Position numbers and translations under genes: made by a program. A stretch of DNA of 64,000 nt. It comes from Cinnamomum chago (Eukaryota; Streptophyta; Magnoliopsida; Laurales; Lauraceae). Positions 10,638 to 38,469 of this stretch are shown here, piece by piece; position 1 is the stretch's first letter, and each line of letters opens with the position of its first letter. The notes below the pieces were generated by a model. That model was not told the origin of the DNA, made no database searches, and saw only the letters and a program-made list of their open reading frames with translations. The stretch lies in NCBI GenBank assembly GCA_038049695.1, contig CP142456.1:21734501-21798500 (forward strand). The letters run 5' to 3'.

Positions 10638-13277
10638 TGATGGACCCGGCTTTTGTATTCTCCTTCCGCCCCAGGGCTGCTAAGGTCTGGCAGATGAGAA
10701 AAACGAGCATCAACATTTTTTGTACGGGTATGCCAGATTTTCTATTTTACTTGGAATTTGAAGTGGTGATCCGGAGATTCACCTTCACAAGTACAAAGGA
10801 AATCAACTCTTTTTTTTTCTAACTTTCCATTGCACATATATTTTTAAGAAAGAGACACAATTTTTTTTAAATGTCGTGAGAGGCGATTTCATTTTGTTTG
10901 CTGTGAAAGGCGGTTTTTTTTTTATGCCGTGAAAGGTGGTTTTGCCATAGAAGGCGATTTACAAATCTCATTAATAATGAAAGACAAGAATTGTGATTTT
11001 TTTGTCTCTTTAAAAAAATACAAAATACAATAGAAAAGTAAGAAAATGAATCTAACTTCTCAAGAGATTGTGGAGACTCATTCAGATCGACGGTCGCAAG
11101 TCGTGTATGGGCTTCGCCATCGTCCTTCAGATGAGAACATATGATGCTTTGATTCTCTTGGCTTGGATCTAACCTTAGATTTTTAGAGGATAAAGACCAA
11201 GGGGAGGTCCTATATCCAATAAAAAACCGAGTAAACGGGCTAAAAAGCCGTGTTTAAGCCATGTTGGATAGAAGGAGAGGGGACCTTGCCTTGGGGGGGG
11301 GGGGGTGGCCCCCCAAGGGACTTTGATCACCTTGTGGTGTTTGCTGCAGCAAAGTAGCAGGGTTTCTTCAGAATTTCTCTCTCTTGCTTGTGTGTATGTG
11401 TGTATGGATATGTATCTGTCCTCCTCTTGGAATGGCCCCTTTTTATAGGCTCTTGGTAGCTATGGGGTGATTTATGACATTGATGACATATGATGAGAGA
11501 ATTGATGGCATTGATGCTCCATGATGGGAGAAGTTACAAGTTTTAATTCTTTTATTTTGTAACTCCTTTTTCTTGACTTGTGATTGGCCGATGAGAATGA
11601 TGGGCATTTAATCGCCTTTAATCTCCATGATGAGAGGAGTTTCATGGTTTTAATGCTATGATTGTTTGGATTTGTAACTCCCATTTGCTTGATTCTGATT
11701 GGGCCGTCCAAAATAATGGGTTAATGACTGCATTTAGTTGTCATAAAACGGATCAATTAACAGCATTAAGTGGTTGCCAGGGCATTTGAAGAGTCGCGGG
11801 CCGTACCCCATCTTTTGGAATTCTTCTTGAGACGATCGCCGATGGATCCACATGTTGTTTGATGTTGGATGGCGGTGCAACTTCAGACATTGATTGGTGC
11901 TAGTGGGCTGGTGACATCTGTCTTGTCGATTTCTCGATCGGTCGGATAGAAAGTATACTTTCTTGGTCAGCCGGTTGGCGATCTTGGAGCGATAAATGAT
12001 GATTTCATGCTCTTGACGGCGGATCCGAAATGTTGATGAAGATCAGTTGATTTCAAGCATCAAGAATCAGATTTTCAGAAAACCACAGGGACTGGAATTC
12101 CTGAAACGTGAAAAGGGTCTGAAAACGGGCCACCCGGCTTTCCAGGGTCGCTGGCGACCATGCACCCAAGGTCGCCGACAACCTTGGGCTACGGTCACCG
12201 GCGACCATGGGGGATTTTCCCCTTGTGGTCGCCGTTTTTCAGCCGTTTCTCTGATTTTTTTTATTCTTTCTTTTCTCCTCTATTTTTGTTGACATTTTTC
12301 CTCATTTATTGGCTTGATTCTCCTGAAGAAAATCTGACGAGAACCCACGCAAATCGAAGCACAAAGTTTTCTATTTTCCGGAAAGGCCGAAGACTTTGTT
12401 GTAGATTTTCTGTCAAGAGTTAAAACTAGGTCAAACGATGTCGGAATGACCTGAAATTTGAGGTGAAGCCTCCTGAGCAGTAGATAGGACCAACCATGGG
12501 CTTTTATTTGACTTTTGAAGCCGTGTGGGGGTCCCGTTGCCAGTAGACTTATTTTGCCGCGAGGAAGATGCCACACTTTGATGTACGGTCAACCGATGTC
12601 TAATCGACTTGAAATTTGACAGGAAGCCTATTGGAGTCATTTAGAGATGATCCATTAGCTCCAATTTGGATGTCATGGTCCTAGGAAGCTCCGTGGCCGG
12701 GAGGATTGATTTTATTTCGGAGTGTCAAAGTCGGGTCAAACGTTGTCGGAATGATTTGAAATTTGACGTGCAGCCCTTTGGAAGCATGTTAAAGCCACCC
12801 ATGTGCTTTGTTTGATGAGTGATGGCCTAGATAGCTCTTGCCGCCGAGAGGCTTGATTTTACTGCTCGAGGGTTGATGGAGGGTCAAACGTTGTTTGTTT
12901 GACTTGAAATTTGGCATGGAACCTTTTGGAGGTATTTTGAGACCATCCGTAGGCTCTGATTGAAGTTTGGATGTCTTCGACATTGTCGCCGCCATGAGCG
13001 CCTATTTGGCTACCGGAGGAGTGAAGTTAGGTCAAATGATGTCGGAATGACCTGAAACTTTATGTAGAGCCTCCTAGTGGCATTTGTAGCCAATTGTATG
13101 CTCTGTTTTGTGTGTCAGGGTCTCTGGCTTCACTGTCGCAGAGAGCTCCTACTCCGTTGCTGGAGTGAAGTTAGGCCAAATGATGTTGAAATGGCCCGAA
13201 ACTTCATGTGCACCTCTCCTTTGGCTTCATGTGGCTTCTTTATGTTGAGGAGGCAGGGTGACTTTTTGGTGTCAACA
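10638..13277 (-). repeat. 3' LTR of Tat element
   Basis: This 2.64-kb LTR aligns with the right LTR (30854-38466) over its whole length except for the nested insertions there. It is bordered by the AAGAG duplication on its outer side and by a polypurine tract on its inner side, which identifies it as the 3' LTR. An 11-12 G run near 11287 is shortened in the other LTR. The short open frames inside it have no family resemblance. Confidence 0.95.
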
Positions 13278-13291: not shown

Positions 13292-14289
13292 GTACAGCGA
13301 CGAGTAGGTTTTGGAGTCGATGTGCCTCGAAGAGAAACTTGGAGGAGAGCTTCTGACTTGACCAAGAGTCTTTGAGCATTTTTTTTTTTTTGTTTTGAAT
13401 AGCCTTTTGAGTTTCCAATGAGATTTTATGGTAGTGAGAGGGATCACGTACTATCTCAAGGGAAAGTTTTGAAAATGACATGGGGGAGTTGGATCTTGGA
13501 TTTTGGATTTTGAGTTTTGAGTTTTCCTTTTGACCTTGTGAACCTAACAGCTGAATGTGGGGCATTAGGCGGTCAAGAGGGTTTTTTTTTTTACCTTGTA
13601 ACTTAACAAGTTGTATGTGGTAGGTTAGGGGTTTAATTTTTTATTTTGACCTTGTGACCCAACAAGCTGTATGTGGCAAATTAGGGGGTCCTATATGTGG
13701 CGAGCTAGGGGGTCAGGATTTGTTTTTTTTTTTTTTTTTTTCGGCCTTATAACCTATCAAGCTGTATGTGGCAAGTTAGGGGACCAGAGTTTGGTTTTTT
13801 GTGGAATGTCAATTTCAAGATTTTGGCTTAATTTGGTTCATGAGGTTGGTTGGTTTGGATTTTTGGAAACTCATGTAGCTTTCCTTTTTTTTTTTTTTTT
13901 TTTTGATCGGTTCAATCAACTCAAAAGAGGTATGGAACCATTTTGAATGCTCTTGGTAAAGGGAATTTTTTGATAGGAAGCCCCTTTTAGTGCCTAGGTG
14001 GTCAAATTTGGCTCATGTGGACTAACTCATGGGATCTTAAGCTTTTAAAGATGACCTAGATCTCATGTGGTGTCATTTTGTAGAGAACATCTAAAAATAT
14101 CTCTTGTGGGTAGAGAATATCTAAAAATATCCTTACTTGGAGAGAATCTCTCATGTTTCCTTGTTTTTGGGAGAGGTTTTCTCAAAGGTTCTTTCTTTGG
14201 GAGAGAATATCTCACAGTCCCTTTCTTTTTGTCAAAGTTGCTAATTTTTAGCACTTACCTCCTTTCTTTTCTCCTTGTTTCCTCTCCTC
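13292..14289. repeat. Non-coding Tat region with degenerate tandem repeats
   Basis: From about 13520 to 13800 a unit of roughly 60 bp recurs four to five times (ccttgtgacc, caacaagctgtatgtggcaa, gttagggggtc), separated by poly-T runs of variable length. From 14075 to 14225 a shorter unit around agagaatatct recurs five times. There is no coding signal. The stretch is immediately upstream of the plus-strand promoter, so it may act as its control region; that is inference. Confidence 0.75.
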
Positions 14290-14296
14290 TATAAAA
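14290..14296 (+). promoter_or_regulatory. TATA box of the antisense gene in Tat
   Basis: TATAAAA in the context cctctataaaagccagggg lies 128 bp upstream of the predicted ATG, followed after about 30 bp by a pyrimidine-rich start region. It faces the PMD gene and away from the 3' LTR, i.e. opposite to gag-pol. The support is motif plus correct spacing to a well-formed first exon. Confidence 0.65.
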
Positions 14297-14427
14297 GCCA
14301 GGGGAGATTGGAACTTTGCTTCATTGCTTTCTTTTTGCAAGAGTCTTCAAGAGTGCTCCAAGATCAAGAACTTCTCTTCTTCTTCAAGAATCTTCAAGTT
14401 CTCTTTCTTCTCCATCCATGGCTTCAA

Positions 14428-15387
14428 GTAAGTTTTCTTCCTTCACAAGAAACTCTAAGTAGAAGTAGAAAAAGTTTCTTTCTTTTCTTTTCTTTTCTTT
14501 TTCTCGTTTTCTTTTATTTTCTTTTCATTTCCACATGTTTTCTTCTTTTTTTGACACGTGCCCCCCCCCCCCCAATTTTTTCTTCCTTTTTCTTTCTTTC
14601 TTTATTTTTTTCTCACAGTTTTTCTTCTTTTTCTTTTTCTTCACGATTTTCCCTTTTTTTTTACCCTTTTTTTTGTTGTACAGACCTGGCCGTACAGCCA
14701 TGTGGCAGTGGGCCACGGCCTGTGGGCCAGCCCAGAAAAAAAAAATTTGAAGAGGTTTTTCTCTTTTTTTTTTTTTTTTGCTCACCATGATAATGAGGTT
14801 TATGCAATTCAAGATGTTCATGCATTTTTTTTATGCATCAAGATAGAAGGCCAGAGTCTCTAGGTCAAGCCAACATGATTTTTGACTTGGACAAAGTTTG
14901 ATTGGTTTTGACCAAGTTGGGTTGGAATTGGTCAAACTTTGTGTAAGGTTTCCCTAGCATCCAATGCATGATGATTTACTTTGATGCATGATTTTTAGTA
15001 AATTGATTTGGAAGCATGATGATGCATACCTGGAAATCTTTTGCAAGTATTGGGATTTGGAGCTCGCAGCAATGTTGAGCCCTTTCTTAGTTTTGCGACG
15101 CCTTTTGAGGAGCTTTGCAAGTTTTTGAAGTCTGGAGCTCGCAGCAATGTTGAGCCCTTTATCAAGCTTGTCGAAATTTGAGAAGACTAACTTGATCTCG
15201 CAGCAATGTTTGAGTTTGAGTCTTCTATGAGCTCGCAATGACGTTGAGCTCATCTTCAAGCTTCTTATCTCTTTCGGGGTGCTTCCCTTTTCTTTGGAAT
15301 TGTCCTGGAATCGCGCCAAAATTTCGTTAGAATTCTTTTAGCAAAATTATGTCATTTCGATGATTGATTTTTTTTAATCCTTTACAG
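14428..15387 (+). other. Intron 1 of the antisense PMD gene
   Basis: The donor CAA|GTAAGT and the acceptor TTTACAG|GT border a 960-bp T-rich intron. It holds long pyrimidine runs (14470-14780), a poly-C tract at about 14564, and a short repeated segment (agctcgcagcaatgttgagc at 15060-15250, four copies). Removing it fuses ATGGCTTCAA to GTAGTTCC in frame and extends a Ser-rich N-terminus. Confidence 0.75.
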
Positions 15388-17609
15388 GTAGTTCCTCCAG
15401 AACGAACAAGGGTAAGGGGTCTGTTACTAATGCATCCTGCCGGTCTGCCAGGTCTCCTAATGCAGCCGTACAGCAGGCCTGGGAGAAGGTACAGTATGTG
15501 GAGAGAAACTTGGAAGAGTGCGACTCCTTCAACCGTGATGAGATGAGGCAACGATTAATCGCTCTCAAGGATGAGGAGTTTTACAAGATTATGGTAAGCA
15601 ACCGTCCTTAGGTCATGGACGATCAGAGCATTATGCCCAAGCCTACCTTCCTCTTTGGTGATGCAGTCCTTGACGACCTGACGTACCAAAGAAGGTGTTT
15701 TCAAATCTCTTACACGGCAGATGGTGAGGAGAGAACTATTTCTACCCGGTCGACCTTCGATCGCACTATCTCGATCATGGGCCTTTCTCCAACATGCCCT
15801 AAGAGGAAAGATCCTCCAAGTTGGGTGGAGAGGACTAATGTGATCAAGACCGGAGTTTTTGTTGGCGGCCCTTCCAGATAAGCAGAGAAGTCGCCTGTCC
15901 GCATGGACACGTTGATGCCAGCCAGTGGCTACCAAGGTTCTGATCATCCACCGGTTGATTTGAGACCGGTGGGCCTTAGCATTTTCCTGGGTGACGGTAG
16001 CAGTTAGGTGAAGCCTTTTCGACTTCGTGGCAATTTCAGAGCTGACTCAACTGGGAGTCATGGATTGATCACATCTTACAGGTTGGTGGGGCCATTCTGA
16101 AGAAGGCCAAGATCTTTGACGTGGTTCGTGCTTTTCGGCAAACCGTAGTTTTCTCCAATGAAGCCTTCATGGCCATGTTGGAGTCATTCCTTCCACAAAC
16201 CAAAACCTTCATTGTCATAAATGGTGAGATTGGTTTTTCTTTGAAGGTATTGAGTGCCATCACCGGGCCGCCTGTCTTCGGCAAACTTTATGAGGAGTTC
16301 ATGCCTATTGACAGCGTCCTTGAGGAGCAGTCTGGGGAGTTTAAGCTTTTGTACTTTCAGCTTGTCGCCTTCTATGATATTTTGAAAGAGAAGATGGGCT
16401 CGAAAGTTAGGTCCAGCAGTTGGAGGAGTTTTGGCTCTTTGTTCCCCAACTTCTTTGACAGCAGAGAGTCTTCTGATAGCACGACTCGGGAAGCCAGAGC
16501 TAAGACTCCGGGTTTGAAGAAGACTTTTGTCACGCGAGATGACTTAAAGGACTTCTTCATGAGCACAAGTATCATTTGTTCTGACACTGCGTTGTGGAGG
16601 GATCTCGTTGTTTACCTCACTTACTGGCTGAGTGAGGCTGTTTTTGCTGGAGGAGATGGAACGCACATCAGGCCGCATTGTATCTTTCCGACTTGTCAGA
16701 TGGCATTCGGAGAGCGGCTTGCTTTGGTGTCTGCAGAAGAAGGCTTTTGATTTTGGTGTCTCCCATGATTCCACCAGGGCAGGGTCGGGAAGGCACTATT
16801 CTTCGACTTATGTAGAGAAGAGGTGGCTTTTTAACATACGAGTTAACACAATGGTGTACCGTAGACATCTTTTTGTATACATCCAACCGTATGTCCCCTC
16901 ACGTTTTGCATTGCAGTTGGGCTTCTCTCAAGGCGTTGTTGGAGCGCCTTCAAGCATGATGAAGTGTTTTGGAGGTTTGCGGGATGGGAGGAATGCATGA
17001 GCCTTTTACAATGCAGAGGACACTACCGCCATGATTTCCTATCCTGAATTGCCCACTTTCTGGACTGATGGCTTTACGAAATAATTCGTAGAGAGATTTT
17101 CGGTGTACCGAGGGCTTTCCAAGAAGGAGCTCGATGTCAAACAATCTTCTAGGAAGGGTCTTGGCAGATCAGATGGAGTCCGACGAGAGGAAGTTCTGGC
17201 TTTCCTTTCTGGAGAGATGCACAAGATAGGCTTTCTCGGTGAACAGGACATCATCGGATCAAGAGCTGTATAAGAGATACCTAGTGAGGTCTTGGAACAG
17301 CTAGAGGAGGAGGAGGCCGAGATCGGCACTTGGATGCAAGCGGAACGAACGAAGGCTTCCTTGTAGTCCACCGGGAAGAGCAGACCATCCGGTGAGAAGT
17401 CAAGCAAGGTCCTGACTTTGAGGATGGGGCGGGTACTTCAACCAAACTGACCCATAGAAGCAAGAGGAAGAGAGGGCAGCGCCGTAATAAGAGATGGCAC
17501 GAAAACTCTCCTGATCCAGAAGTGCCTCTCACCATTGCTGAAGAGATGTCAGGAGACGCTGATGAGCCTTCGGAAAAAAGGAGTCGAGAGGAAGAGACCG
17601 TTAGTGAAG

Positions 17610-18105
17610 GTATGATTCTTCCTTTTTCTCTTTCCATTTCATTCATTGAGACTTTGTTGTTTTGATTTGCGTTCTCTCCCTTTTTCAGTGGGAGATGATG
17701 ATTTGGGGATGCCTGAGGTTCCAGTTGATGAGGCACTGACGGATCCAATCGTGGCATCTGAAGAAGAACCTAGGGACTCTGGAGTGATTCCAGAATCTTC
17801 ACCTAGTATGACTTCTTTGTATTTTATTTTTTTTATATGTGCCGTCATTTGCTAACATATTGCTTGTTTCCTTGTCAGCTGACTTGCCAAAGAATTTCGA
17901 CGACTTCGAGCCACCCACGAATGCAACCTTTGACGATGCTTCAGATGAACTCATGGAGGCAGAAAGCATTCCGCTGTTCGTCGAAGAAGGTATTTGTAGC
18001 AATAATCCTGATGATAATGATTTTTCAACAGGATCATGTTCATACCTTTTTTTGTTTTGCTAGCAGGTTGTGAGGTAACATGAGAAGTTCCACACTCTTT
18101 CTCAG
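17610..18105 (+). other. Three short introns of the antisense PMD gene
   Basis: Introns lie at 17610-17688 (GTATGA...TTTTTCAG), 17806-17878 (GTATGA...TTGTCAG) and 17990-18105 (GTATTT...TTTCTCAG). All three are phase 1 and removing them keeps one acidic reading frame open. The frames do not continue through the intron sequences. The exact acceptor of the third could be an upstream AG, but only 18105 restores the frame. Confidence 0.75.
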
Positions 18106-19159
18106 GGCCAGAGCAGGGGATGCCTGCAGTTGAACCAGAAGTAGGGACTTCTTCTTCCAGTTTGAATGCGGCAGGGGTGAAATCTTCTGAGGAGATTCCT
18201 TTGCCCTGTGTTTCCGATTAGAAAGAGTTCGATGATCACTCCTCCAACAGGGCATGACACGGGCGATCGACCAATGGAGAGGGGCGAGCCTTCAAACGGG
18301 CCATCTCTTCAGTATGCGAAGAAAGTGTTGAAGAGCGTCTTGAGCTCATGGGTCGAAACTCTTTCTTCTGGCCATTTGGAAGCTGGCTTCAGGATGATCA
18401 AGTATGTGCAGGACATCCTTTCTGATAGCAAAGAGGTTGATCTGGACATTGCAAGTGGGAACGTTGTTGTTGATGAAGTCATTATTTTGGGCAACAAATG
18501 GAATGAGACCAAGAGCTTCCCAAATGGTGACTTGTTCAATGAAATGTTTTTGAAGCTTTCTGGTGAGGTCAAGTCTGAACTGAATGAGATATCGCGGACT
18601 CAGAAGCAATTCGTTTAGGAGAGTAATGTCATCGAGTTAGCTATCATTGAGCTAACAGAAGACCTGCACCGTCTTGATAGGGAGGTCGTTGAAGCCAAGC
18701 AGCGTTTCGAGCTATTGGAGGAACAAGCTGCTGCCAAATGGACCGCCATTGTGGAAGCTCGTGCTAGAGAGGGGACTCTGATTCGCCAAGTCGATGAAGC
18801 TAACAGCAATCTCCAGAGGAAAACTCAGGAATACGAGCAATGGTAGATTCTCTGGGAAAAACTTCCCCGTGCTGAAGATGGGTAGCGGCGTTCTGCCGTA
18901 TTTTATGGAAAATTTTTGAAGAAGCGTGGGTTGGAAGCTTTAGAGACTAAGGCCAAGAGTTTGCTTGAGGAGATGAATCTTTGGTTAAACACCATGTTAG
19001 ACTGAGCTCCTGATTTTTGGAAACAAACTCTTTTCTTCTTTTCTTTAGTACCTCCATGCAAAAACATTTTTGGTACCTATATACCTTTCACTTAAATTCT
19101 TTTTGATGAAAATAAGCAAAAGTTGGATGAGAATGTTTGGGAAAACTTGACCAAAAGGT

Positions 19160-19420
19160 TGTCATTTAGTGAAAATCTTTTGTCAAAGGATTATTTTGGT
19201 ATGAAAGCCAGATTTTGTGGCAAAAGGCCTGACTTTTTGATGGCTTGAAAGCCGAGTTTTGAGATGGCATGAAAGCCGGATTTTGAGATGGCATGAAAGC
19301 CGAATTTTGAGATAGCATTAAAGCCAAATTTTTGGGATGGCGTAAAAGTTGAAATTTGGGTTTACGGCATGAGAGCCGAAATTTTGTTTTTTGCATAAAA
19401 GCGAGGTTTTGGTTTTAAAA
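19160..19420. repeat. About 28-bp tandem repeat in Tat, downstream of the antisense gene
   Basis: A unit like gatggcatgaaagccgaatt plus ttga occurs seven to eight times with increasing divergence to the right. It lies just past the stop of the antisense gene and before the next array. Confidence 0.85.
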
Positions 19421-19429
19421 AATGTAAGT

Positions 19430-19940: not shown

Positions 19941-20289
19941 TGAAAAACCATTTTTGTTTAAAGACACGAGGGTCATAAATTTTGACCTAAAACCATTTTG
20001 GTGGTAGAAGGCAGAGTGGACTAGGGTGGAAATCCCTAATCAAACCATGAATTTTGGGTTCAAGGATTGAAAATTTTGGTCAAGTCCGGGAAGAGGCTCC
20101 TAAACTTGGATTTTTGGATTTGATTTTTTTGTTAACAATGAAATGATAAAAGTAAGCATTGTTTTGAGAGTTTTTTTTTTAAATTTCAACATAAGGATCA
20201 AAATTCCAAAAGGGATGGGTTTGGTGAGCAAGTACCTAGGAATAAGATTTGGCCATATAGGCATCGCTCTGACCCGTTGGAGGAAGTCT

Positions 20290-21420
20290 TCAAGGGTAGT
20301 ACCGCTTCAAGAACTTTCCGTTGATGGGCAGCATACATCTGTCACCTTCCATGTTTAGAAGGGCATATGCACCGTTGGAGAAGACTTTGTCGATGACGAA
20401 GGGTCGCTTCCATTTTGGTTCGAACTTGCCTTTGGATTTGTGGGCGAAAACCATTGACCTTTTTACTGCAAGAATCAAGTCTCCCTTTTTGTAGGCGCGT
20501 TGCCTGACATTCTTGTCGAAAGATCCTGTCATGCGTGCTTGGTAAAGCTCAATGCTTTGTAGAGCTTCAAGCCGTCTCTCATCGAGATTATCCAACTCTT
20601 CGAGTCTCAATTTGACATTGCTTTCTTGCGTGATGTAATTTTGCAAAGATACCCTTAAGGAAGGAATTTGTACTTCCAAAGGGACAACAACTTCACAACC
20701 ATAAACCAAAGAGAATGGTGTGCTATGAGTTGGTCCTCAAACGGTGGTTCGATAATCCCACAAAGCTTCAGGTAGTTTGTCGCACCAGTCTCTTTTGGGA
20801 CTTGAGACCATTTTCTTGAGAATTTTGCAGAGTATCTTGTTGAATGCTTCTGCTAGTCCATTCGCTGTAGGATTATATGGAGTCAAAGGATAACTTTGGA
20901 TTTTGTACTTGTGACAGAACCTGTAAAATCTGTGATCCCGGAATTGTGGTCTGTTATCATGGATGAATCTTTCAGGTATGCCAAAGCGACAAATAATGTT
21001 GCTGCGCAAAAATTGAAGGACTGATGAGGTCTTCATTTCGCTGAGCGCAAATGCTTCTGACCTCTAGGAGAAATAATCTGTAGCGGCGAAGATGAAGCGA
21101 TGACCTTTGCTTGATCGGGGAGAGATAGGACCTATTATGTCCATACCCCAGACTTCGAAAGGCCGTGAGTTCGCTGTAGGATGTAACCATTCTGGAGGCA
21201 TGTGGACATAACCTCCATGAATTTAGCAATGTTGGCAGCGTTTAGCAAATTGCATTGCATCAGCTACCATGGTAAGCCAATAATAACCTAACTTTTTTAT
21301 CTGATCGTAGTGCTTGGGACCAGCCTGATGAGCTCCACAAAGACCAGCATGCACTTCTTTGAGAGTTTCCTCGGCCTCTTGTTGTGACAAGCAGCGTAGA
21401 AGTACTCAATTGAAGGATTA
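20290..21420 (-). pseudogene. Tat pol: integrase
   Basis: Reading right to left across frames: an HHCC zinc-binding region (EVHAGLCGAHQAG ... CQHC near 21235), then WGMDIIGPISPRSSKGHRF, with the first catalytic Asp, and ATDYF. RFIHDNRPQFRDHRF follows with the second Asp, then NPTANGLAEAFNK with the Glu. The C-terminal module contains RAYKKGDLILAV and GKFEPKWKRPFVI and ends at LKRYYP followed by a stop. Stops or shifts occur near 21230, 21060 and 20735. This is the last pol domain before the 7-kb 3' region. Confidence 0.93.
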
Positions 21421-21699: not shown

Positions 21700-22263
21700 A
21701 GTCTAGCTAGGGCATCTGTACGGATGTTTTCACCTCTAAGGATGTGGGTGATGTGACAGATGTCAAACTTTTACTGAAGTGATTGTGCCTTGTTGTAGTA
21801 AGGCAACAAATCAAGCTTCTTGACTTCAAATTTCTGATTCATCCAGTTGACGATCAGTTGAGAGTCCACAAAGGCTTCTAGCACGGTGATGCCAAATTCG
21901 AGGGTGAGTACCAATCCCACAATCAGAGCTTGGTACTCAGCTGCATTGTTTGAGTGGTTCCAATAGCAAAAAAGCGTGCGGAATCATGTATTTTTCGAGA
22001 CTAACAAAGAGAATGCCAATTCCCGATATTTGCTTTCCTTTTTCATTTGTCCCGATTGCGCTGTCAAAGTACATGTCCCAGGAAGCATTAGATGGGGAAA
22101 TCTCCACGGTGTAGACAGGTTCGTCTGGGAGATCATCCTTGAGTGGAGAATCTTTAGGTAATGGGTGCTCTGTAGGAACGTCTGCAAGAGCTTGGCCTTT
22201 GATTGCTTTTTGTGGTACATACCTAATATCGAATTGCGACAGAAGGATGGACCATTTTGCCAA
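21700..22263 (-). pseudogene. Tat pol: second (archaeal-type) RNase H
   Basis: The domain opens with WDMYFDSAIG (first catalytic Asp). It continues with a NNAAEYQALIVGLVL-like block (catalytic Glu) and an EAFVDSQLIVNWMNQKFEV-like block (second Asp), all readable on the minus strand between 21950 and 21780 with stops between. A second RNase H after the ordinary one is diagnostic of the Tat clade. Upstream, VPQKAIKGQALADV is the usual tether between the two RNase H domains. Confidence 0.9.
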
Positions 22264-22868
22264 TCAGGCATTGAGAGAACTTGTTCTTGTGACAAGGACC
22301 TTTAAAAGATTGATCATCGAAATCAGGTACACTGTGTTGGACATCAGATAGTGATGCAACTTTTGTACGGCTAACATCACTGCAAGGCATTTTTTTTCGA
22401 CTGAAGAGTAGTGATGCTCTGCACCTACCAACATGTGGTTGAGGTAATATAAAGCAATTTCTTTTCCCTCGTCATTTTCTTGTGCTAGTAGAGCACCCAA
22501 AGAGTAATCAAGAGCTCTTGTGTACAAGATGAATGGTTTTCCAATTGTGGGGGCAGCCGGTATTGGAGGCTTGTTCAGGTATGTCTTGATGTCTTGAAAT
22601 GCAGCTTCACATTCAGCATCCCAAACAAAGTCCACACCTTTCTTCATTAACCGAGAGATAGACGACACTTCCCTGACAAATTGGAGATGAACCGTCGAAT
22701 GTATGTCAACCTTCCTTGAAGCTCTTTTAGCTCTCTTAGGGTTCTTGGAGATGGCATTTCTAGGATAGCCTTGACTTTGGTGGGGTCAAGTTCTATTCCG
22801 GCTTTTCGAACTATGAATTTGAGGAACTTACCCGATGATACACCGAAGAAGCATTTTAGCGGATTCAT
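22264..22868 (-). pseudogene. Tat pol: RT thumb/connection and first RNase H
   Basis: NPLKCFFGVSSGKFLKFIV, LRELKELQGRLTYIRRFIS and MKKGVDFVWDAECEAAFQDI mark the RT thumb and connection. LYTRALDYSLGALLAQEND and HYSSVEKKCLAVMLAVQKL mark the gypsy RNase H. Two overlapping frames show an indel near 22655. No D-to-N change is visible at the first RNase H position (LDYSLG). Confidence 0.92.
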
Positions 22869-22934
22869 CCGTAGTTTGTGTTTACGAAGTCGAAGGAAGA
22901 CTTCTCGAAGATTTTTGAGATGGTCTTCTTTTCT

Positions 22935-23741
22935 TCAACCTTTGATGGCGAGATCATCAATGTAACATTCGACCGTCTTGTGCTGCATATCTTGGAATAT
23001 CTTCATCATAGCCCTTTGATATGTTGCACCTACATTTTTCAGACCAAATGACATCACTGTGTAGCCATACACGCCAAATGGAGTCCGAAATGTTGTATGT
23101 CTTTCATCTTCAGTATGCATCTTTATCTGATTGTGGCCAGAGAAGCCATCCATGAATGTCATTCGCTCGAATCCGCAGGTTTTGTCAATCATCACCTCTG
23201 GTATGGGGAGCATAAATTCATCTTTAGGGCATGCAATATTCAGGTCTCTATAGTCAATACAGACCTTGATCTGCCCATTTTTCTTTGTCAGGGGGGCGAT
23301 GTTGGCCAACCATTCTAGATATTGTTCCTCACGGATGAAGCCAATGCTTTTGAGTTTCTGAACTTCTTGTTCAATTTTGTCCATCACATCAGGATGGAAT
23401 CTTCTTTGGCCTTGTTTGACAGGCTTGATATCTGTTTCTAGATTGAGTTTATGGAATGCTATTTTGGGGTCTAAGCCAGGCATTTCAGCGTAACACCATG
23501 CAAAACAATCAACGAACTCACAAAGAAAAGCGATATACTCGGGTAACTCATCATCCTTTATATTCTTACTTATGAATACAGGACGTGGGTTATCAGATGT
23601 CCCCACGTCTATCTTTTGAATAGGATCTTCTGTTGGAAGGTTTGAAAGTGGTTCCTCCATAATGTTTTCGGAGGCTTCCAACTCAACAAGACCTTTTGGA
23701 GTTCCAAAGGATTTACAAACCAAGGTTTTGCTTTTGTCCAT
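22935..23741 (-). pseudogene. Tat pol: reverse transcriptase
   Basis: This is the longest uninterrupted pol segment (268 codons). It carries the N-terminal block MPGLDPKIAFHKLN, KQGQRRFHPDVMDKIEQEVQ, PLTKKNGQIKVCIDYRDLN (the first RT signature), MTFMDGFSGHNQI (catalytic Asp), YTVMSFGLKNVGATYQRAM and the catalytic YIDD in CYIDDLAIKG. The frame is lost right after the YIDD motif at about 22935. It copies element RNA to DNA in active relatives. Confidence 0.95.
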
Positions 23742-24723
23742 GGGTCTTCTTGATCGGTACTCTTCTCAAGACTTGCAATGAGATGATCCCAATCACCTGT
23801 TGAAACTGGGTTGAAGTAGGGTATTTATTTTGGAGACGATGGTTCTTCTGGTTCACAAAACAGTGCGCCTGTGTCATCGAACAATTCTTCTTCATCGTTA
23901 GAGAAATCATACCAATTGGAGGAGCTTCCTGGATCCTTGACGGGTGACTCCTGAAAGAGATATCCAGGGTGATCAATGTCTTCATGGACACGAGATGTTG
24001 AGGCTTGGTCGGCAAAACGACTTTACAGCCTTTGTGTCAACTATCTCATGGGAGTGTCAGGATCATACCCCAACCCGTATGAAGACTTGTCTATATGACG
24101 ATAGAGTTTCCAATCCTCCAGCTGACTTTTGGTCAGAGTAGGTTCCAATGGTGTGGGAATACCACGGCCACCTCCCAAACCGATTGGATTCTGAGCATCA
24201 TAGCCCATTTTCTTCATGATAGCTTATGCCATTGGACTATACAAGAATAGTGGAGGCATACCTTCAATTTGGAAATGTTCAAGCGAAGAATTTGATAAAG
24301 AGGCTTCCGATCTGTGGAAGAAGATTGTCTTTTCTTCTGCCGAAGTTGCCGGAACAACGAAGGAAGCAAACGTAGGGTCTTATACGTCCGCAAGTGTTTC
24401 CAATGGAGTGAGAACGGGATGAACTTGCTAAGTATCGGCTTGGCTTGACGTTGTGTCGTCTTCTAACTTTGAATCTAAATATGTGTCATGCATAATAGAC
24501 ACAAAAGAGACAACAAACTTGCCCCTAGCCCCTTTTGTTTTGTCTTCTTTGCTTTGGTGGTGATTACCAAAGGCTTTGAAAATTTGATAGAGACAACGAA
24601 AGGAGAATGACTACTCTCTTCAGATTTGCTGGAAGGTTATTTTTCTTCCGATGATTGCTGAGGAGCATTGCCCTTATCTTTCCGGAGATTTTCAGCAAAG
24701 GGTGTTGTTTCTTCCTCCATTTC
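23742..24723 (-). pseudogene. Tat pol: spacer between protease and RT
   Basis: This stretch has no open frame of useful length. Fragments rich in acidic residues and prolines are readable around 23880-24020 on the minus strand, as usual between protease and RT in Tat elements, but I recognise no domain. It is interrupted by many stops. Confidence 0.5.
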
Positions 24724-25161
24724 TTATTTTTCATCTTTATACACCTGAGCATCTGTAAAATGGACGTCTTTGCCTTTGAAGGAATTTTTATCTGCAAACA
24801 CTCGATGTATTAAGCTGTCGTTGCCAACGAACTTAATGCACTGATGTAAAGTTGAAGGGACGACACCATTCTCATGTATCCAAGGGCGTCCAAGAAGGAT
24901 GTTGTAGCATGAAGGGGTCCTTATTGCATACACAGTGACTTCAGAGATATGATCACCAATTTGCAACTTGAACCTGATTTTGCCGATAGACCTTTGAGCG
25001 CTCCCATCATATCCAAAGATGGATACAAACGTGTGACTCAACCTGCTAGGTGGAATACCCATCTCTTCGAGCGATGAAGTAGAGATGAGGTTGAGTGCAG
25101 AACCTGGGTCGATCTGGACTCTGTGAATCGGCATTTCTTTGAAGTACCATGTAAAGTACAA
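24724..25161 (-). pseudogene. Tat pol: aspartic protease
   Basis: A retropepsin-like fold is visible: VQIDPGSALNLIS with the catalytic Asp in a D-x-G-S motif near residue 17, a flap-like region, and YNILLGRPWIHENG, the conserved ILLGR-W block of gypsy proteases, near residue 103. The segment begins in frame with Tyr-Phe-Lys. It processes Gag-Pol in functional relatives. Confidence 0.9.
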
Positions 25162-30853: not shown

Positions 30854-33800
30854 TGATGGACCCGGCTTTCATCCTCTCCTTCTGCCCCGAGGTTACCGGG
30901 GTCTGGCGGAGGAGAAAAGCAAGCATCAACATTTTTTGTACAAGTATGCCATATTTTCTATTCTATTTGGAATTTGAAGTGGTGATCCGGAGATTCACCT
31001 TCACAAGTAGAAAGAAAATCAACTCTTTTTTCTAACTTCCCATTGCACATATTTTTAAGAAAGAGACACAATTTTTTTTTAAAAGTCGTGAGAGGCGATT
31101 TCATTTTGTTTGCCATAAAAGGAGGTTATTTTTTGTGCCGTGAAAGGTGGTTTTGCCGTAGAAAGCGATTTTTATGCCGTGAAAGGCGGTTTTGCCGTAG
31201 AAGGTTATTTACAAATCTCATCAATAATGAAAGACAAGAATTGTGATTTTTTTGTCTCTTTAAAAAAATACAAAATACAATAGAAAAAAGTAAGAAAATG
31301 AATCTAACTTCTCAGGAGATTGTGGGGACTCGTTCAGATCGACGGTTGCAAGTCGTGTATGGGCTTCACCATTGTCCTTCAGATGAGAAAATATAATGCT
31401 TTGATTCTTTTGGCTTGGCTCTAACCTCAGATTTTTAGAGGATAAAGACAAAGGGGAGGTTCTATATCCAATAAAAAACCGAGTAAATGGGCTGAAAAGC
31501 CGCGTTTAGGCCATGTTGGATAGAAGGAAAGGGGACCTTGCCTTGGGGGGTTGCCCCACAAGGGACTTTGATCACCTTGTGGTGTTTGCTACAGCAGAGT
31601 AGCAGGACTTCTTCAAGAGTTCTCTCTCTTGCTTGTGTGTATGTGTGTATGGATATGTATCTGTCCTCCTCTTGGAATGACCCCTTTTTGTAGACTCTTG
31701 GTAGCCATGGGGTGATTTATGGCATTGATGACCCATGATGAGAGAATTGATGGCATTGATGCTCCATGATGGGAGAAGTTACAAGTTTTAATTCTTTTAT
31801 TTTGTAACTCCTTTTTCTTGGCTTGAGATTGGCCGATGGAAAATAATGGTCATTTAATCGCCTTTAATCTCCATGATGAGAGGAGTTTCATGGTTTTAAT
31901 GCCATGATTGTTTGGATTTGTAACTCCCATTTCCTTAATTCTGATTGAGCCGTCCAAAATAATGGGTTAATGGCCGCATTAAGTTGCCATAAAATGGATC
32001 AATTAACAACATTAAGTGGCCGCCAGGGCATTTGAAGAGTCGCGGTCGGTACCCCGTCTTTTGGAATTCTTCTTGTGATGATCACCGATGGATCCACACG
32101 TTGTTTGATGTCGGATGGCGATGCAACTTCAGACATTGATTGGTGCCAGTGGGCCAGTGACATCTGTCTTGTCGATTTCTCTATCGGTCGAACAAAAAGT
32201 GTACTTTCTTGGTCAGCCGGTTGGCGATCTTAGAGCGATCAATGATGATTTCATGCTCTTGATGGAGGATCCAAAATGTTGATGAAGATCAGTTGATTTC
32301 AAGCATCAAGAATCAGATTTTCGGAAAACCACATGGGCTGAAATTCTTGAAACACGAAAAGTGTAACATCCCGGAATTCCATGGTTGTAATTAGTTTAGT
32401 TAATTGTACTTTTAGCTAATTAAGCTCATTTATAAGCCAAACAGGTCTGATTAATCTTTAGGGTCGCGCGTGCAAAGTTGGGTTGATATCCGAGCCCGTT
32501 TGGGTACAGTAGGGGTGTGTGTCGCTTTTTCGGAAGAGTTCCGAGGGTCTTTTAGTATTTTCTGCTTTTCGTGATTTTGGCACCATCGGGTAGATTACCT
32601 AAATTCCCGGACTTTGTCCTTCTATTGCATCTTGATCCGGACCCTCGAACACGACCGAAAACCTGACCTGACTCGAACACATCTAAGCTTAATTTATTAA
32701 TTTCCTAAAAGTCAAACCCCACCCCCACCTAACCTAATCCCATGTGAGCCCCACCTCATCTCCCCATCCTATTTTCCTTTATCCCATCTCATCCCCATCA
32801 AAACACCCCCTTTATCCCATGTGCAAAACCCCCCCACCCATTTCCCATTTCTCCTTTTTCCTTTACTAGGTCAAAACCCTCCCTTCCATTTTCCATTCAC
32901 AACAGCAGCGCCCCCCCCCCCCCCCTTGTTCTCATCTCTTTCGTTCTCCACTCCCTCACCTCACTCTCCTCACTGCCTCGCTGGACAACGAGCATGCTGC
33001 CGCCGGTCACCCTCATCTTTGGGGGACTCCTCTCCTCATCTCATCTCATCTCCCTCTCCCAGCACCTCGCTACCCCACCGTCCCGGCATCATCATCGTCG
33101 CCGTCGGCGACCTCCATGATCACCGCCAGCCGCCGGCGAACCCAACCCACCCCATCTCTCTTTATTTCCCCCATTTTCCATTTCTCTCTTTCTCTCCCTC
33201 CCCCCCCCCCCCCCCCCGCCCCTGTTTCTCTCTCCCACGATTTCTCTCTTTCCTTTCTTTATTTCTTCCTCCCCACTTGCTGCCAACATGAATTAGTCTC
33301 AACCCTTTTCATTTCTCTGTTTCTTTCTCTCTGTTCATTATTTATTTCTTTTCCTCCATCCACTCCCCTTGCTACCAACGTGAGGTACCCCTCACCCATC
33401 TCATTCTATCTCTCTTACTTTCTATCTCTCCACTCACTGTTCACATAAGCTAAATCCCAACTAATCTCACCATTTTCACTCTTTCTCTCTCTTACTTTCT
33501 CCATTCTTTCTTCGTTCTGTCTTTGTTGTGGGGGTTGTTAATGGACCACCAAGAGTCCCCATCACCACCAATTTAGTGGGCCACCAATCATGTGGGCCCC
33601 ACAACCCCCACAACCTCCCCATCTCAATTTCAATTATTTTTCTCTCTTTCTCAACCTTTTTCACCCACCTTGCTGGAAATGGACTGCAAAGGCAGCCCCA
33701 CCTTCGATCTTTGTCATCATCTCCGCGTGGACCCCGCGAGCTTCTCATCTCCAATTTGCAAGCCACCACTCCATCCACCCATTTATTTGGTAAGCTCTTT

Positions 33801-34319
33801 TCCCTTAGGTTTGGGTTAATGTATTTTGGGTGTAGTAATGTGTTAGATAGCTTAGAGGTTCCCTTTCTTTTGGTTTATTATTTAATTTAGTTTTATTTTT
33901 CTAATTATCCCTTAGGTTTGGTTTGTTGGGCAATGGAGTTAGGATTTATGGATTTGGGCATTTTTCCACCAAAGGCAAGTAGATATTTATATATATTCTT
34001 GGATATGTTTGTCTTTCCTTTGATTTGATGATTGATGATGATTTAGATGACCACATGCTCATTGATACTTTAAATGTTTGAAAACATAATAATATAAATT
34101 GAATGGTTGGATTGGGATGGATGTTGGTTGAATGGACTTGATAAGAGGGGGTATGGGTGTATGTGGAGAAGGCAAGGCCCTATTTTTTTTATTTGCAAGA
34201 TTAGAATGGAAGGGCTAGGCCCTTCATACTGACTAATTACATGTTTTGGGATCTTGGAAAGGGGTTTCCACCCATTTCACTTCAGTTACAGGACTGAGGT
34301 TCTATAACTGCAGTGTCTG

Positions 34320-34462
34320 CGGTTGACCGGCCAAAGGGACCGGGTCGACCGGCCACACACAATGAGGCTCTCTGGAGCCTGATGAAAAACACCGTGCACT
34401 CCATTTGTTTACAACTTCCGGTCGACCAGATTGGGTCGGGTTGACCGAGTACTCTGTGTGGG
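34320..34462. repeat. GTCGACC-type motif cluster in the solo LTR
   Basis: Five variants of GGTCGACC or GGTTGACC (near 34321, 34344, 34420, 34436 and 34440) occur within 140 bp, some joined to GGCC or GGGT. They resemble the clusters near 4.25 kb and 35.9 kb, although the flanking sequence differs. Confidence 0.65.
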
Positions 34463-35825
34463 ATGTGGACCGGGCCCATTGTTGGATACCTTTTTGAAGG
34501 GCCCTTTTTGACTTTTTTCGGTTGGACTTGGGTGGAACCTTGGCTACCTTTTTGGACTCATTTGACTATATGTAAAGATGTTTTGAGCCGACTTCTTTTA
34601 CGGTTAATCCAGTTGTATCAGTTACAACTTATCTCAATCTTGAACGGTACGGGACAACGGATACCCCCTTTATATCTATGCACGAAGATTGTCCATTAGG
34701 GTATCACGAACCCTATTCTCTTCATTGACTGAGTATGGTTGTACGATACCTCGGGTTTAACACTGTACCTAGGATTGGATTGTCTATCACTTCTGATTCC
34801 AAGTTGTACTGTCTAGTACTTTTCTACATGCTATGTTCATGTTCCTTAGCTTCATTTGCTTTGTTTTGTTTTTGGATTACTTGATGAACCTAGGTGTCGA
34901 ACTTAGGATCCCTTTTGATGTTCCGTTTGTTTTGACTATTGATTGAAGTGTTGAGGCTAGGTGGCTTTGATTGTAAAAGCTTGACGAGGACTACTTATGG
35001 TATTGATGTTGGAAGAAGCTTTCTTGTTGGGTCTTGATCTTGATTTGATAATGGAAAGTAATCTCTCTTTTATTAATGAATCTTGTTTGCGCAAGAAAGC
35101 TTAGCCCCTCACTATTGTTTGTCTAAGGATCTTTGTGTTAAGCACCACTCAGCTCTATGTCGCCCAACACGGATGGGGCACCATCTGTGTGAGGACCTTG
35201 ATGAACGTCTGCGCAATACGAATTTTTACATTTTAGATGGATGTACACCATCGGATACATCTTGAGCACTTGACTCTTAGATGCGAAAAGCAAGGGAGAG
35301 CTCTAACCAAGGGGGAGAAATCTTGGAAAGATTAAGTTAAAAGCTCTCGACGAATCGGTCATACGGTCGAAGCTACATTCAAGAGATTTCTAGAACTGAG
35401 CCGTTAAGAAGAACCAAAGTCCTAGAAGTGTTGTGATCATATTAGTTGCCATCAAATTGCAAAGGGGGAGATTGTTAGGTTTTTGTTTGTTGCTAATTTG
35501 ATGGATTCACATTCACCTTCACTGTCAAATGATCACACACTCATGCTCTTAGTTTTGACTTTGGAATCTAAGATTCTATCTTGCATTTGCATATGTTTTT
35601 CAAATGATTTATTCATGCATGTTTTTAGAATCCAAATACTCTTTTGAAAACCTAATTCTTCATACATTATTTTGGAAAATCAAATTAAGAATTTAGGTTT
35701 GTGATTTGCATACATTTCCTATTTTTAGAATCTTTTTATCATGCTTAAATCACACTGGCCTTGAGTTCCATGTTTCATCTTTGGATTTTTGAAAACTCTG
35801 CAGGGACTCTTCCCAGGCCAGTTTG

Positions 35826-36000
35826 GTCGGTCGACCGACCCATGTACCTGGTCGACCGACCAAACTGTCTGTTGGGAAAACAGCCAATGTACCCGGTCGA
35901 CCGAGCCATGCCCAGGTCGACCGGGTAACTAGCCGTTGGGCCAATTTTACCGTTGGGCCAGATTGACCCGGGGGTCATGGGGTCGACCGAGCCAACTAGC
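35826..36000. repeat. GTCGAC palindrome cluster in the Sirevirus-like LTR
   Basis: GGTCGGTCGACCGACC, GGTCGACCGACC and CGGTCGACCGAG and relatives occur five times within 175 bp, immediately upstream of the LTR TATA box. Clustered palindromes in the LTR promoter region have been described for Sireviruses. Confidence 0.8.
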
Positions 36001-36017
36001 CGTTGGACTGTCTTTTG

Positions 36018-36025
36018 TATATAAG
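36018..36025 (+). promoter_or_regulatory. TATA box of Sirevirus-like LTR
   Basis: TATATAAG in tttgtatataagtcc lies 545 bp into the LTR, just downstream of the palindrome cluster. It is supported by motif and position. Confidence 0.6.
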
Positions 36026-38327
36026 TCCATTTCATTCCCTTCTTTCAAGATACTTGATAATTGAATCTTTGGAACCCTATTGAAGCCTAAAGAAGTGGAA
36101 TAAGCTAAGAGAGCTAGAAGGCTATTGGAAATCAAATGTTTGAGATTTAAAGGGTATATCTTAGTAGTTAATTTTGATTTCCATTCCATTTAAAATCAAT
36201 GCATGTTTAACTCTTTGTTTTTTCATATATGCATGATTTCTAACTTTTAAAGAGATGTTTTACAAACACAATATCACCTTTGGAATATTAGATTGCTTTG
36301 CAAACATTCTTGTCTAAATCACATGTGTTCTTAGTTGTTAATCTTCTTACAACTTGTTTAGGACTTTCTTTCAAGTTGCTTGATCCTTTCATGTGATTAG
36401 CATATAACTTCAATCACCTTTTTCTGAGCTTAGATTTTAAAATGCATCAAGCATTCATTTAAGAGCTTCATTTTAGAATTTGATTGGAGTAAAACATTCA
36501 TACACTTTGTGCACACACTTTAGCTATTTGTTGTGTATGTTTGTACATTGATTTTCACTTTCATATCAGCCTATTGAAGAGGCAATTCTATTGAGCTTAA
36601 ATTGTATCTCTTAGAGTGTTTTTGTATAGACACCTTCTTTGAGAAATCTTTCATTTGTAAAGGTTATTGCTTAGCCTAAGAAAAGCACATTGTAAAGGTT
36701 ATTGCTTAACCTTGGAAAAGCATCTTGTAGAGGTTGTAGTTTAGCCTAGGAAAACAACGTTGTAAAGGTTATTGCTTAGCCTATTAAAAAGCATAGATAG
36801 TGGAAATCCGGTGGGGTGATTGGATCACAAGCCGGTAGTGGATGTAGGCATTGAGGCCGAACCACTATAAACCTTTGTGTAATGGTGTATGCTTGTGGTG
36901 ATTTCTTTTGTTAGCTTCTGCATCTTGTTTGGTAAATCATCACTTGTGACTAGTTTATTTTAAAGAAATTAAAATTGGTCTAAATTGGTCACATATTGTA
37001 GCTCACCCTATTCACACCCCCCCCCCTCTAGGGTTAGGATCCCAAGACTTTCAAGATGTGCATACTCTGAGATATTATATTGTACCATTTGTTTAATATG
37101 ATGTTCCGCTATGTTTTATGGTTACCGAGGAAATATTTATACCTCACCACGGACTTCGATCGTATGGGACATGATTGGGGCTAAGTGTTATTATTATTAT
37201 TGTTGAAAGATTTTAATTGACCCTAATCTCACGCATAACCCCGGTTTCAATTTTGGGGTTGTGACAAAAAGGGTCTGAAAACGAGCCACCTGGCTCGCCG
37301 GCGACCATGGGGGATTTTCCCCTTTTGGTTGTCGTTTTTCGGTCGTTTCTCCAATTTTTTTATTCTTTTTTTTTCTCCTCTATTTTTCTTGAAATTTTCT
37401 CACATTTATCGGCTTGATTATACTAAAGAAAATCTGACGAGAAGCCGTGCAAATCAAAACACAAAGTTTTTTATTTTCCAAAAAGGTCGAAGACTTTGTT
37501 GCTGATTTTCCGTCAAGAGTCAAAACTAGGTCAAACGATGTCGGAATGACCTGAAATTTGAGGTGAAGCCTCCTGAGCAGTAGATAGGACCATCCATGGG
37601 CTTTTACTTGACTTTTGAAGCCGTTTGGGGTCCCGTTGCCAGTAGACTTGATTTTGCCGCGAGGAAGATGCCGCGCTTTGATGTACGGTCAACCGATGTC
37701 CGATCGACTTGAAATTTGATAGGGAGCCTATTGGAGTCATTTTGAGACGATCCATTAGCTCTGATTTGGATGTCATGGTCCCGAGAAGCTCCTCCGCCAG
37801 GAGGCTTGATTTTGTTTCGGAGCATCAAAGTCAGGCCAAATTTGTCGAATGACCTAGAAATTTGACGTGCAGCCCTTTGGAAGCATGTTGAAGCCACCCA
37901 TGTGCTCTGTTTGACGAGTGATGGCCTCGATAGCTCTCGCCACCGAGAGGCTTGATTTTACTACTCGAGGGTTGATGAAGGGTCAAACGTTGTCGGTTTG
38001 ACTTGAGATTTGGCACGGAGCCTTTTGGAGGTATTTTAAGATCATCCATAGGCTCTGGTCGAAGTTTTGATGTCTTCGACACTGTCGCCGCCAAGAGCAC
38101 CGTTTGGCTACCGGATGAGTAAAGTTAGGCCAAATGATGTCGGAATGGCCTGAAACTTAATGTAGAGCCTCCTAGTAGAATTTTGAGGCCAGTTGTATGC
38201 TCTGTTTTGTGTGTCAGGGTCTCTAGCTTCACTGCCGCCGAGAGCTCCTACTCAGCTGCTGGAGGAGTGAAGTTAAGCCAAATGATGTTGAAATGGCCCG
38301 TAACTTCATGTGCACCTCTCTTTTGGC

Positions 38328-38412
38328 TGTCTTGAAGAATCTTGCAATTTTTGTTAGGTTCTAACAAGATTTGATGCTTGAAGTAGCATTGCTTGTTTGT
38401 AATAGGATGCGG
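38328..38412. repeat. Small ~85-bp insertion in the Tat 5' LTR
   Basis: Comparing the two Tat LTRs, an extra piece lies between ttggc and ttcatgtg here. It holds an inverted repeat aatcttg ... caagatt around gttaggttctaac. A repeated ggc borders it. It carries no gene and could be a tiny MITE or filler DNA. Confidence 0.6.
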
Positions 38413-38469
38413 CTTCATGTGTCTTTTTTATGTTGAGGAGGCAGGGTGACTTTTTTGGTGTCAACAAAG

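What the first reader, a model, noticed from the sequence alone, without database searches (positions are those of the whole stretch)
14290..19005. Self-contained, spliced, antisense plant-mobile-domain gene riding in a giant Tat retrotransposon
Seen: on the strand opposite to gag-pol, between integrase and the 3' LTR, a TATA box, a 10-base first coding exon with a GTAAGT donor, a 960-bp intron and three further short phase-1 introns with GT-AG borders can be joined into one protein. It has a Ser-rich start, a PMD core, acidic stretches and a coiled coil. Established: extra antisense ORFs in Tat/Ogre elements are known, and PMD proteins occur both as host silencing factors (MAIN, MAIL1) and in transposons. 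Inference: the element keeps an independently transcribed gene whose product may counteract or mimic host PMD function. An antisense unit with introns can only be spliced from its own transcript, not from genomic RNA, so introns survive retrotransposition. That would explain why they persist.
Basis: partly seen in the sequence, partly recalled or inferred. Interest (0 to 1): 0.82.

Follow-up and report, generated by a model that had tools for sequence, protein, structure and literature searches.

The report
Intron-bearing antisense gene inside a retrotransposon
A giant plant retrotransposon carries, on the strand opposite to its own replication genes, a five-exon gene for a plant-mobile-domain protein that selection has preserved across related elements, although the copy in this window is dead.

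Summary
The gene is real. On the strand opposite pol, between integrase and the 3' LTR of a Tat element, lie a TATA box, a 10-base first exon, a 960-bp intron and three short phase-1 introns, as described. The window copy is a pseudogene: 10 in-frame stops, about 286 bp fewer in exon 2, and a PMD just under Pfam's cut-off (32.3 vs 34.9 bits).

The family is informative. 20 fetched siblings and one copy of a 70-75%-identical subfamily (L059) share exons, phases and boundaries. L059 has one premature stop in 1,216 codons and a PMD over profile positions 1-346 of 347. dN/dS between the subfamilies averages 0.18, against 0.93-1.19 in four of five other frames. Shared variants carry fewer amino-acid changes than private ones (stratified p = 6e-5). 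Of 55 scored exon-2 copies of L059's subfamily, 23 are stop-free. No exon-joined copy was found.

PMD in Ogre elements and antisense accessory genes with their own promoter are both published. The conserved multi-intron antisense PMD gene under measured purifying selection is the new part. Transcription, splicing and the proposed anti-silencing role are untested.

The parts
10638..13277 (-). 3' LTR of the element (left side; element runs on the minus strand)
   Evidence: 87.7-94.8% identical blocks to the right LTR; TGATGG...TCAACA ends and AAGAG duplication
14078..14228 (+). about 30-bp tandem repeat with AGAGAATATCTC core directly upstream of the TATA box (candidate promoter array)
   Evidence: Tandem Repeats Finder; AATATCT 8.4 per kb in the 250 bp upstream of TATA against 0.27 per kb elsewhere over 18 copies, which are not independent
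14290..14297 (+). TATA box TATAAAAG, 128 bp before the ATG
   Evidence: TATAAA kept in 16 of 17 eligible rows (window included) and in L059
14418..14427 (+). exon 1 (10 coding bases, ATGGCTTCAA), phase 1 end
   Evidence: ATG kept in 14 of 16 eligible rows and in L059; exon1+donor 17-mer occurs 879 times in the genome, reversed control 0
14428..15387 (+). intron 1, 960 bp, GTAAGT...TTTACAG
   Evidence: 698 bp in L059 with the same borders
15388..17609 (+). exon 2: N-terminal region, PMD, basic cluster. Damaged here by stops, frame changes and about 286 missing bp near 16735
16046..16747 (+). longest open piece of the plant mobile domain (PF10536, profile 2-152 of 347)
17610..17688 (+). intron 2 (79 bp, phase 1)
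   Evidence: 91 bp in L059
17689..17805 (+). exon 3 (117 bp, acidic)
17806..17878 (+). intron 3 (73 bp, phase 1)
   Evidence: 71 bp in L059
17879..17989 (+). exon 4 (111 bp, acidic)
17990..18066 (+). intron 4 (77 bp, phase 1)
   Evidence: 72 bp in L059
18067..19004 (+). exon 5: acidic then coiled-coil-like C-terminus, with premature stops in this copy
   Evidence: coiled-coil-type hits below cut-off and a crude heptad count without control in L059
19239..19909 (+). tandem arrays (24, 41, 44-bp units) between the gene and pol
20290..21405 (-). integrase (H2C2 21223-21405, rve core 20737-21063, C-terminal region to 20290)
21771..21983 (-). second RNase H (RVT_3, aRH) between RNase H and integrase: the Tat mark
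22264..25161 (-). RNase H 22264-22668, reverse transcriptase 22935-23741, protease 24724-25161
30854..38466 (-). 5' LTR (right side), split by an insertion at about 32362-37266

Best explanation
A resident accessory gene of an angiosperm-type Tat (Ogre/Retand-like) Ty3/gypsy retrotransposon. [quoted passage not shown] Shown: anatomy, residence in the element, conserved gene structure in two subfamilies, and purifying selection on the protein. Inferred: it is transcribed from its own promoter and spliced by the host. Because its introns are backwards in genomic RNA they are not spliced out of the retrotransposed template, so new copies keep them. Most likely function (inferred, about 30%): a nuclear factor that engages the host PMD silencing machinery (MAIN/MAIL1-PP7L) or the element's own chromatin, to keep the element expressed. 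The window copy itself is dead. The confidence given is for the gene and its selection, not for the function.
For: dN/dS between L059 and 21 rows (window plus 20 siblings) averages 0.178 (dN 0.18, dS 1.02); PMD 0.13, exons 3-5 about 0.3. Four of five other frames give 0.93-1.19; the fifth, a minus-strand frame mirroring third positions, gives 0.27. 1,173 of 1,227 codon columns are in frame with L059's own model. Private against shared (3 or more copies) variants: transitions N/S 445/281 against 181/183 (p = 3.5e-4), transversions 436/124 against 20/12 (p = 0.053); stratified odds ratio 1.64, p = 6e-5. L059 keeps all eight splice dinucleotides while intron mismatch is 25-42%. Matches of 40 scored copies to joined exons 2-5 break at the junctions. 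Exon1-exon2 joined form 0 against 236 unspliced acceptor sites. 32 of 38 gene ends are followed by integrase. 23 of 55 scored exon-2 copies are stop-free. Integrase dN/dS between the same two subfamilies is 0.14.
Against: No RNA or protein data. Within the window's own family splice dinucleotides are kept hardly better than intron interior (100 of 115 against 83%), as expected of decayed copies. None of the 21 aligned family rows is stop-free, and L059 has one stop in exon 5. L059 is one copy; dS near 1 is close to saturation. The transversion part of the shared/private contrast alone is not significant at 0.05. The 55 scored exon-2 copies are the most similar of 4,457 candidates, so the stop-free share is biased upward. 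Nothing tested bears on anti-silencing.
Confidence: 0.78

Rival explanations
1. Same gene, different job: a nuclear accessory factor of the integration complex (nuclear import, DNA binding or target choice) rather than a silencing antagonist.
For: Local basic cluster KRKR at residue 784, acidic stretch of net charge -34, coiled-coil-like C-terminus in L059. Grande's antisense gene product is nuclear, and Vicient and Casacuberta propose retroviral-accessory-like roles (PMC7264820, parts 1-2 of 3 read). Integrase and the gene show constraint of similar strength.
Against: No Pfam family other than PMD over its cut-off in the pieces scanned; PMD relatives with known roles act in silencing (PMC5418596, passages).
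Confidence: 0.3
2. The selected product is the antisense RNA itself (dsRNA or siRNA control of the element), the reading frame being incidental.
For: Antisense transcripts of LTR elements can trigger or interfere with silencing (PMC7264820; PMC12786077, passages).
Against: Constraint follows codons: divergence by codon position 0.20, 0.17, 0.39, and dN/dS 0.18 in the coding frame; introns mismatch at 25-42%.
Confidence: 0.05
3. A dead fossil or chance assembly: splice signals and frames read into decayed DNA.
For: True of this copy as a working gene: 10 stops, frame changes, a lost part of the PMD.
Against: Family-level frame, shared-versus-private substitution contrast, and L059.
Confidence: 0.02
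4. A passenger from another mobile element or host gene that settled in one lineage and is slowly decaying, without use to the retrotransposon.
For: Other PMD loci, some host-like, exist in this genome; MULE elements captured PMD genes elsewhere (PMC5418596, passages). The gene is more diverged than its integrase: dS about 1.0 against 0.37 between the same two elements, so the module may have moved.
Against: Purifying selection near that on integrase, and many stop-free copies.
Confidence: 0.08

Closest known systems
PMD-bearing extra ORFs of Ogre/Tat elements (PMD-A1/A2, Gypsy-encoded)
   Same: PF10536 protein inside a Tat element with aRH between RNase H and integrase; PMD reported in 57% of Ogre elements (PMC6317226, passages); PMD-A clades exclusively Gypsy-encoded and widespread in angiosperms (PMC5418596, passages)
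   Different: There extra ORFs were called as single frames of at least 250 codons, and the passages read do not give orientation or introns for the PMD ones; here the gene is antisense, between pol and the 3' LTR, with a 10-base first exon and four conserved introns
Grande gene23 and the aORF-3R class
   Same: Antisense gene between pol and 3' LTR; gene23 has a promoter of its own and a nuclear product (PMC7264820, parts 1-2 of 3; the primary paper is not held)
   Different: The review reports no clear similarity of aORF-3R products to other proteins and asks for spliced antisense transcripts to be looked for; here a PMD and conserved introns
Retand antisense TRP28 genes
   Same: Long pol-3'LTR region with antisense coding sequence and tandem arrays (PMC11963269, parts 1-3 of 5 read)
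   Different: TRP28 (PF04195) in 97% of clusters there; no PF04195 hit in the pieces scanned here; ORF Finder was used there, and introns are not discussed in the parts read
MAIN/MAIL1 host PMD proteins
   Same: PMD family; the host proteins act in TE silencing with PP7L (PMC8616336 passages; PMC7156037 title, abstract start and passages)
   Different: Retrotransposon gene, low PMD score (57-58 bits against 301 for the best PMD locus of this genome), long acidic and coiled-coil-like tail
HBZ-type antisense genes of deltaretroviruses
   Same: Works alike in plan: antisense, spliced, nuclear product (splicing recalled; nuclear location of HBZ in PMC11963269)
   Different: No relation claimed; HBZ starts in the 3' LTR (recalled)

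Membership tests
Tat clade of Ty3/gypsy | second, archaeal-type RNase H (aRH) in the polyprotein | tested here: met
   RVT_3 39.1 bits at 21771-21983, between RNase H and integrase; definition from PMC6317226 passages
Tat clade of Ty3/gypsy | grouping by RT/RH/INT phylogeny | not testable with these tools
   no reference RT set at hand
Ogre subclade | PMD extra ORF | tested here: met
   PMD is common in Ogre (57%) but the text read does not make it defining
Ogre subclade | tRNA-Arg primer binding site | not tested
   sequence beside the 5' LTR was printed but not compared with tRNA ends
Retand subclade | antisense TRP28 (PF04195) gene between pol and 3' LTR | tested here: not met
   no PF04195 among Pfam hits of the pieces scanned; not every base of the region was scanned
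PF10536 plant mobile domain | score at or above the gathering cut-off 34.9 | tested here: met
   4 of 5 PMD-bearing sibling pieces over the cut-off (41.9-58.1 bits), the fifth 33.4; L059 57.0. The window piece alone, 32.3, is under it
[quoted passage not shown]
   32 of 38 gene 3'-end pieces, from 40 scored of 2,721 candidates, are followed by integrase on the same strand; two more are followed only by the spacer before it
aORF-3R (Grande gene23 type) | transcription from its own promoter | not testable with these tools
   TATA region conserved; no RNA data
Silencing antagonist acting on MAIN/MAIL1-PP7L | contact with or effect on host PMD proteins | not testable with these tools
   no interaction or reporter data

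The most novel reading that the evidence does not exclude
A retrotransposon lineage runs a complete, independently promoted, multi-intron nuclear gene whose PMD protein acts as a decoy or antagonist of the host's own PMD (MAIN/MAIL1-PP7L) silencing complex. The gene travels as a module: it is exchanged between Tat lineages at the tandem arrays beside pol, which would explain gene dS near 1.0 against integrase dS of 0.37 between the same two elements. The antisense layout is what lets a retroelement own introns indefinitely.
Probability: 0.15. Interest if true: 0.85.

Novelty: new variant of a known kind. Interest (0 to 1): 0.6.

Why it matters
Antisense accessory genes of plant retrotransposons are known but without known function, and the surveys read here called them as uninterrupted ORFs. 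A five-exon version under purifying selection close to that on integrase shows that such an element can hold a full eukaryotic-style gene, introns included. It gives a defined protein with which to test whether PMD proteins of retrotransposons oppose the host PMD silencing pathway. It also warns that ORF-only annotation will miss or truncate such genes and may call their exons host genes.

Tried and rejected
Chance ORF or misread splice sites: rejected at family level. Antisense RNA as the only selected product: disfavoured by codon-position divergence. Splice-site conservation inside the window's family as evidence: tried, not informative (100 of 115 kept against 83% background); only the diverged subfamily is informative. 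A pooled test of shared against private variants gave p = 2.4e-10 but mixes transitions and transversions, which inflates it; the stratified value is used instead. Variants in exactly two copies were left out of that test, and codon columns past 1190 were left out because nearly all rows reaching there share stops, which points to a slip of the column phase. Sequence search of solved structures with a sibling PMD piece gave nothing significant (best E 0.12). GAGAATATCTC over the whole window equals chance in number (25 against 25.5 expected), though 8 of the 25 lie within 14083-14213. Structure prediction was not run: by its description the tool takes window sequence or loci from other searches, and a single damaged window piece would give a poor model. 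Host identity, RT phylogeny, transcripts and LTR dating were not obtained. Two primary papers (Gomez-Orte 2013, Steinbauerova 2011) are not held.
Full report
What is there. An LTR retrotransposon on the minus strand spans 10638-38466, with LTRs that are 87.7-94.8% identical in blocks, TGATGG...TCAACA ends and an AAGAG duplication; its 5' LTR is split by a later insertion of about 4.9 kb. Protease, reverse transcriptase, RNase H, a second RNase H (RVT_3) and integrase follow in that order; four pieces where gag is expected gave no Pfam hit. An aRH between RNase H and integrase is what the reference survey gives for the angiosperm Tat subclades Ogre and Retand (PMC6317226, passages).

The antisense unit. 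A 30-bp repeat lies just upstream of the TATA box.

This copy is dead. In family codon columns it has 10 stops before codon 1190, the frame changes inside exon 2, and exon 2 is 2,222 bp against 2,508 core columns. Alignments to siblings break near window 16735 and resume 234-288 bases further on in 17 of the 20 fetched; the other three show no second piece. Its PMD piece scores 32.3 bits, under the 34.9 cut-off.

The family. Of 2,101 first-look candidates 40 were scored, the window included; the others match at 81-90% identity over pieces of 240 bases or more. Core exon lengths are 10, 2508, 117, 111 and 936, the last four each a multiple of 3. Codon columns past 1190 were set aside, since nearly all rows there share stops, probably a slip of the column phase. 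In-frame stops up to codon 1190 fill 151 of 20,143 codon cells, against 896 and 1,475 in the other two phases and 463, 1,130 and 554 on the minus strand. None of the 21 rows is stop-free. Comparing variants seen in one copy with those seen in three or more: transitions N/S 445/281 against 181/183 (p = 3.5e-4), transversions 436/124 against 20/12 (p = 0.053); stratified odds ratio 1.64, p = 6e-5. That is the pattern of a protein constrained while the element spread and released after insertion. Splice dinucleotides inside this family are kept in 100 of 115 cases, hardly above the 83% of intron interior, so they are not evidence on their own.

The diverged subfamily. One copy (L059), with a gene at 70-75% DNA identity to the window, was fetched because its integrase is 89% identical to the window's. 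It shows the same five exons and four phase-1 introns with different intron lengths (698, 91, 71, 72), 1,216 codons and one premature stop in exon 5. 1,173 of 1,227 codon columns are in frame with it. dN/dS against 21 rows averages 0.178 (range 0.13-0.21): 0.16 N-terminal, 0.13 PMD (21 rows each), 0.18 rest of exon 2 (16 rows), 0.29 exons 3-4 and 0.31 exon 5 (13 rows each); within the family 210 pairs average 0.38. The other frames give 1.06, 1.08, 0.93, 1.19 and 0.27, the last being a minus-strand frame that mirrors the third positions. Mismatch is 0.16 in the promoter/5' UTR against 0.25-0.42 in introns. Its PMD covers profile positions 1-346 of 347 at 57.0 bits. Using its exon 2 as a protein query, 55 places were scored of 4,457 candidates, at 92-97% identity besides itself; 23 of 55, itself included, have no stop. 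These are the most similar places, so the share is biased, but it shows that an abundant subfamily has many open exon-2 copies.

Residence and introns. In the scored copies there are 38 gene 3'-end pieces; 32 are followed on the same strand within 1 kb by a piece reaching into integrase, two more by the spacer only, and four by neither. The exon1-donor 17-mer occurs 879 times, with 0 in the reversed control. The unspliced acceptor pattern (29 bases, up to 3 mismatches) occurs 236 times, control 0; the exon1-exon2 joined form (28 bases, up to 3 mismatches) 0 times. A 345-base query of joined exons 2-5 matched 40 scored copies of 1,242 candidates only in pieces; no listed row runs more than 5 bases past a junction (not all of the 153 matches are listed). 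No intronless copy was thus seen, which fits genomic-RNA templates in which these introns run backwards. It does not prove splicing.

A discordance. Between the window element and L059's element, gene dS is about 1.03 but integrase dS is 0.37. Between the window and a sibling's integrase it is 0.24, near the within-family gene mean of 0.23. Integrase dN/dS is 0.14 between the subfamilies and 0.34 between window and sibling, close to the gene's 0.18 and 0.38. Module exchange at the tandem arrays between gene and pol is one reading of the dS gap. It rests on one diverged element.

How it most likely works. Shown: gene anatomy, residence, codon-level constraint. From established knowledge: an antisense gene with its own promoter and a nuclear product exists in Grande (PMC7264820); PMD proteins of Gypsy elements form their own clades, and host PMD proteins MAIN/MAIL1 silence TEs (PMC5418596; PMC8616336). 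Inferred: own transcription, host splicing, a nuclear protein. A local basic cluster, an acidic stretch and a heptad-biased tail (a crude count without control) fit a nuclear scaffold protein. I put the silencing-antagonist reading at about 30%, an integration or nuclear-entry role at about the same, and the rest open.

What is new. PMD in 57% of Ogre elements and antisense ORFs in the surveyed Retand elements are published (PMC6317226 passages; PMC11963269 parts 1-3). The 2020 review asked for spliced antisense transcripts to be looked for. My searches for spliced or intron-bearing antisense genes in plant LTR elements showed no such report in titles, abstract starts or the passages I opened. 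Those searches cover open-licence PMC papers only, most listed papers were not opened, and two relevant primary papers are not held.

Noticed in passing
14078-14228 and the aligned place in siblings and L059: A 30-bp tandem repeat upstream of the TATA box is rich in AATATCT: 38 in the 250-bp upstream stretches of 18 copies (0 in one of them) against 29 in the remaining ~106 kb. The core resembles the plant evening element (recalled); could give clock or cold control.
   Followed up: partly
19005-20289, L059, L060, L061: Gene and integrase give discordant divergence between subfamilies (dS 1.03 against 0.37), suggesting exchange of the gene module near the tandem arrays.
   Followed up: partly
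L039 (C9:39533118-39539318): One sibling carries two extra copies of about 335 bp of the PMD-end region of exon 2.
   Followed up: no
32362-37266: An insertion of about 4.9 kb splits the 5' LTR; it contains 35-bp repeats at 36655-36789.
   Followed up: no
7718-8056 minus strand: Fragment of a DDE_Tnp_4 (PIF/Harbinger-type, recalled) transposase, 37.3 bits, with tandem repeats nearby (7375-7602, 8651-8994).
   Followed up: no
G000 C10:59768590-59801066: Three PMD loci with open frames of 499-597 aa and the best PMD scores listed for the genome (246-301 bits); they may be host PMD genes.
   Followed up: no
L006 (C6:21809214-21813365): A different PMD family about 12 kb right of the window; many places with near-equal scores and the same stop pattern (1 TGA, 1 TAA) inside the PMD, perhaps introns.
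   Followed up: no
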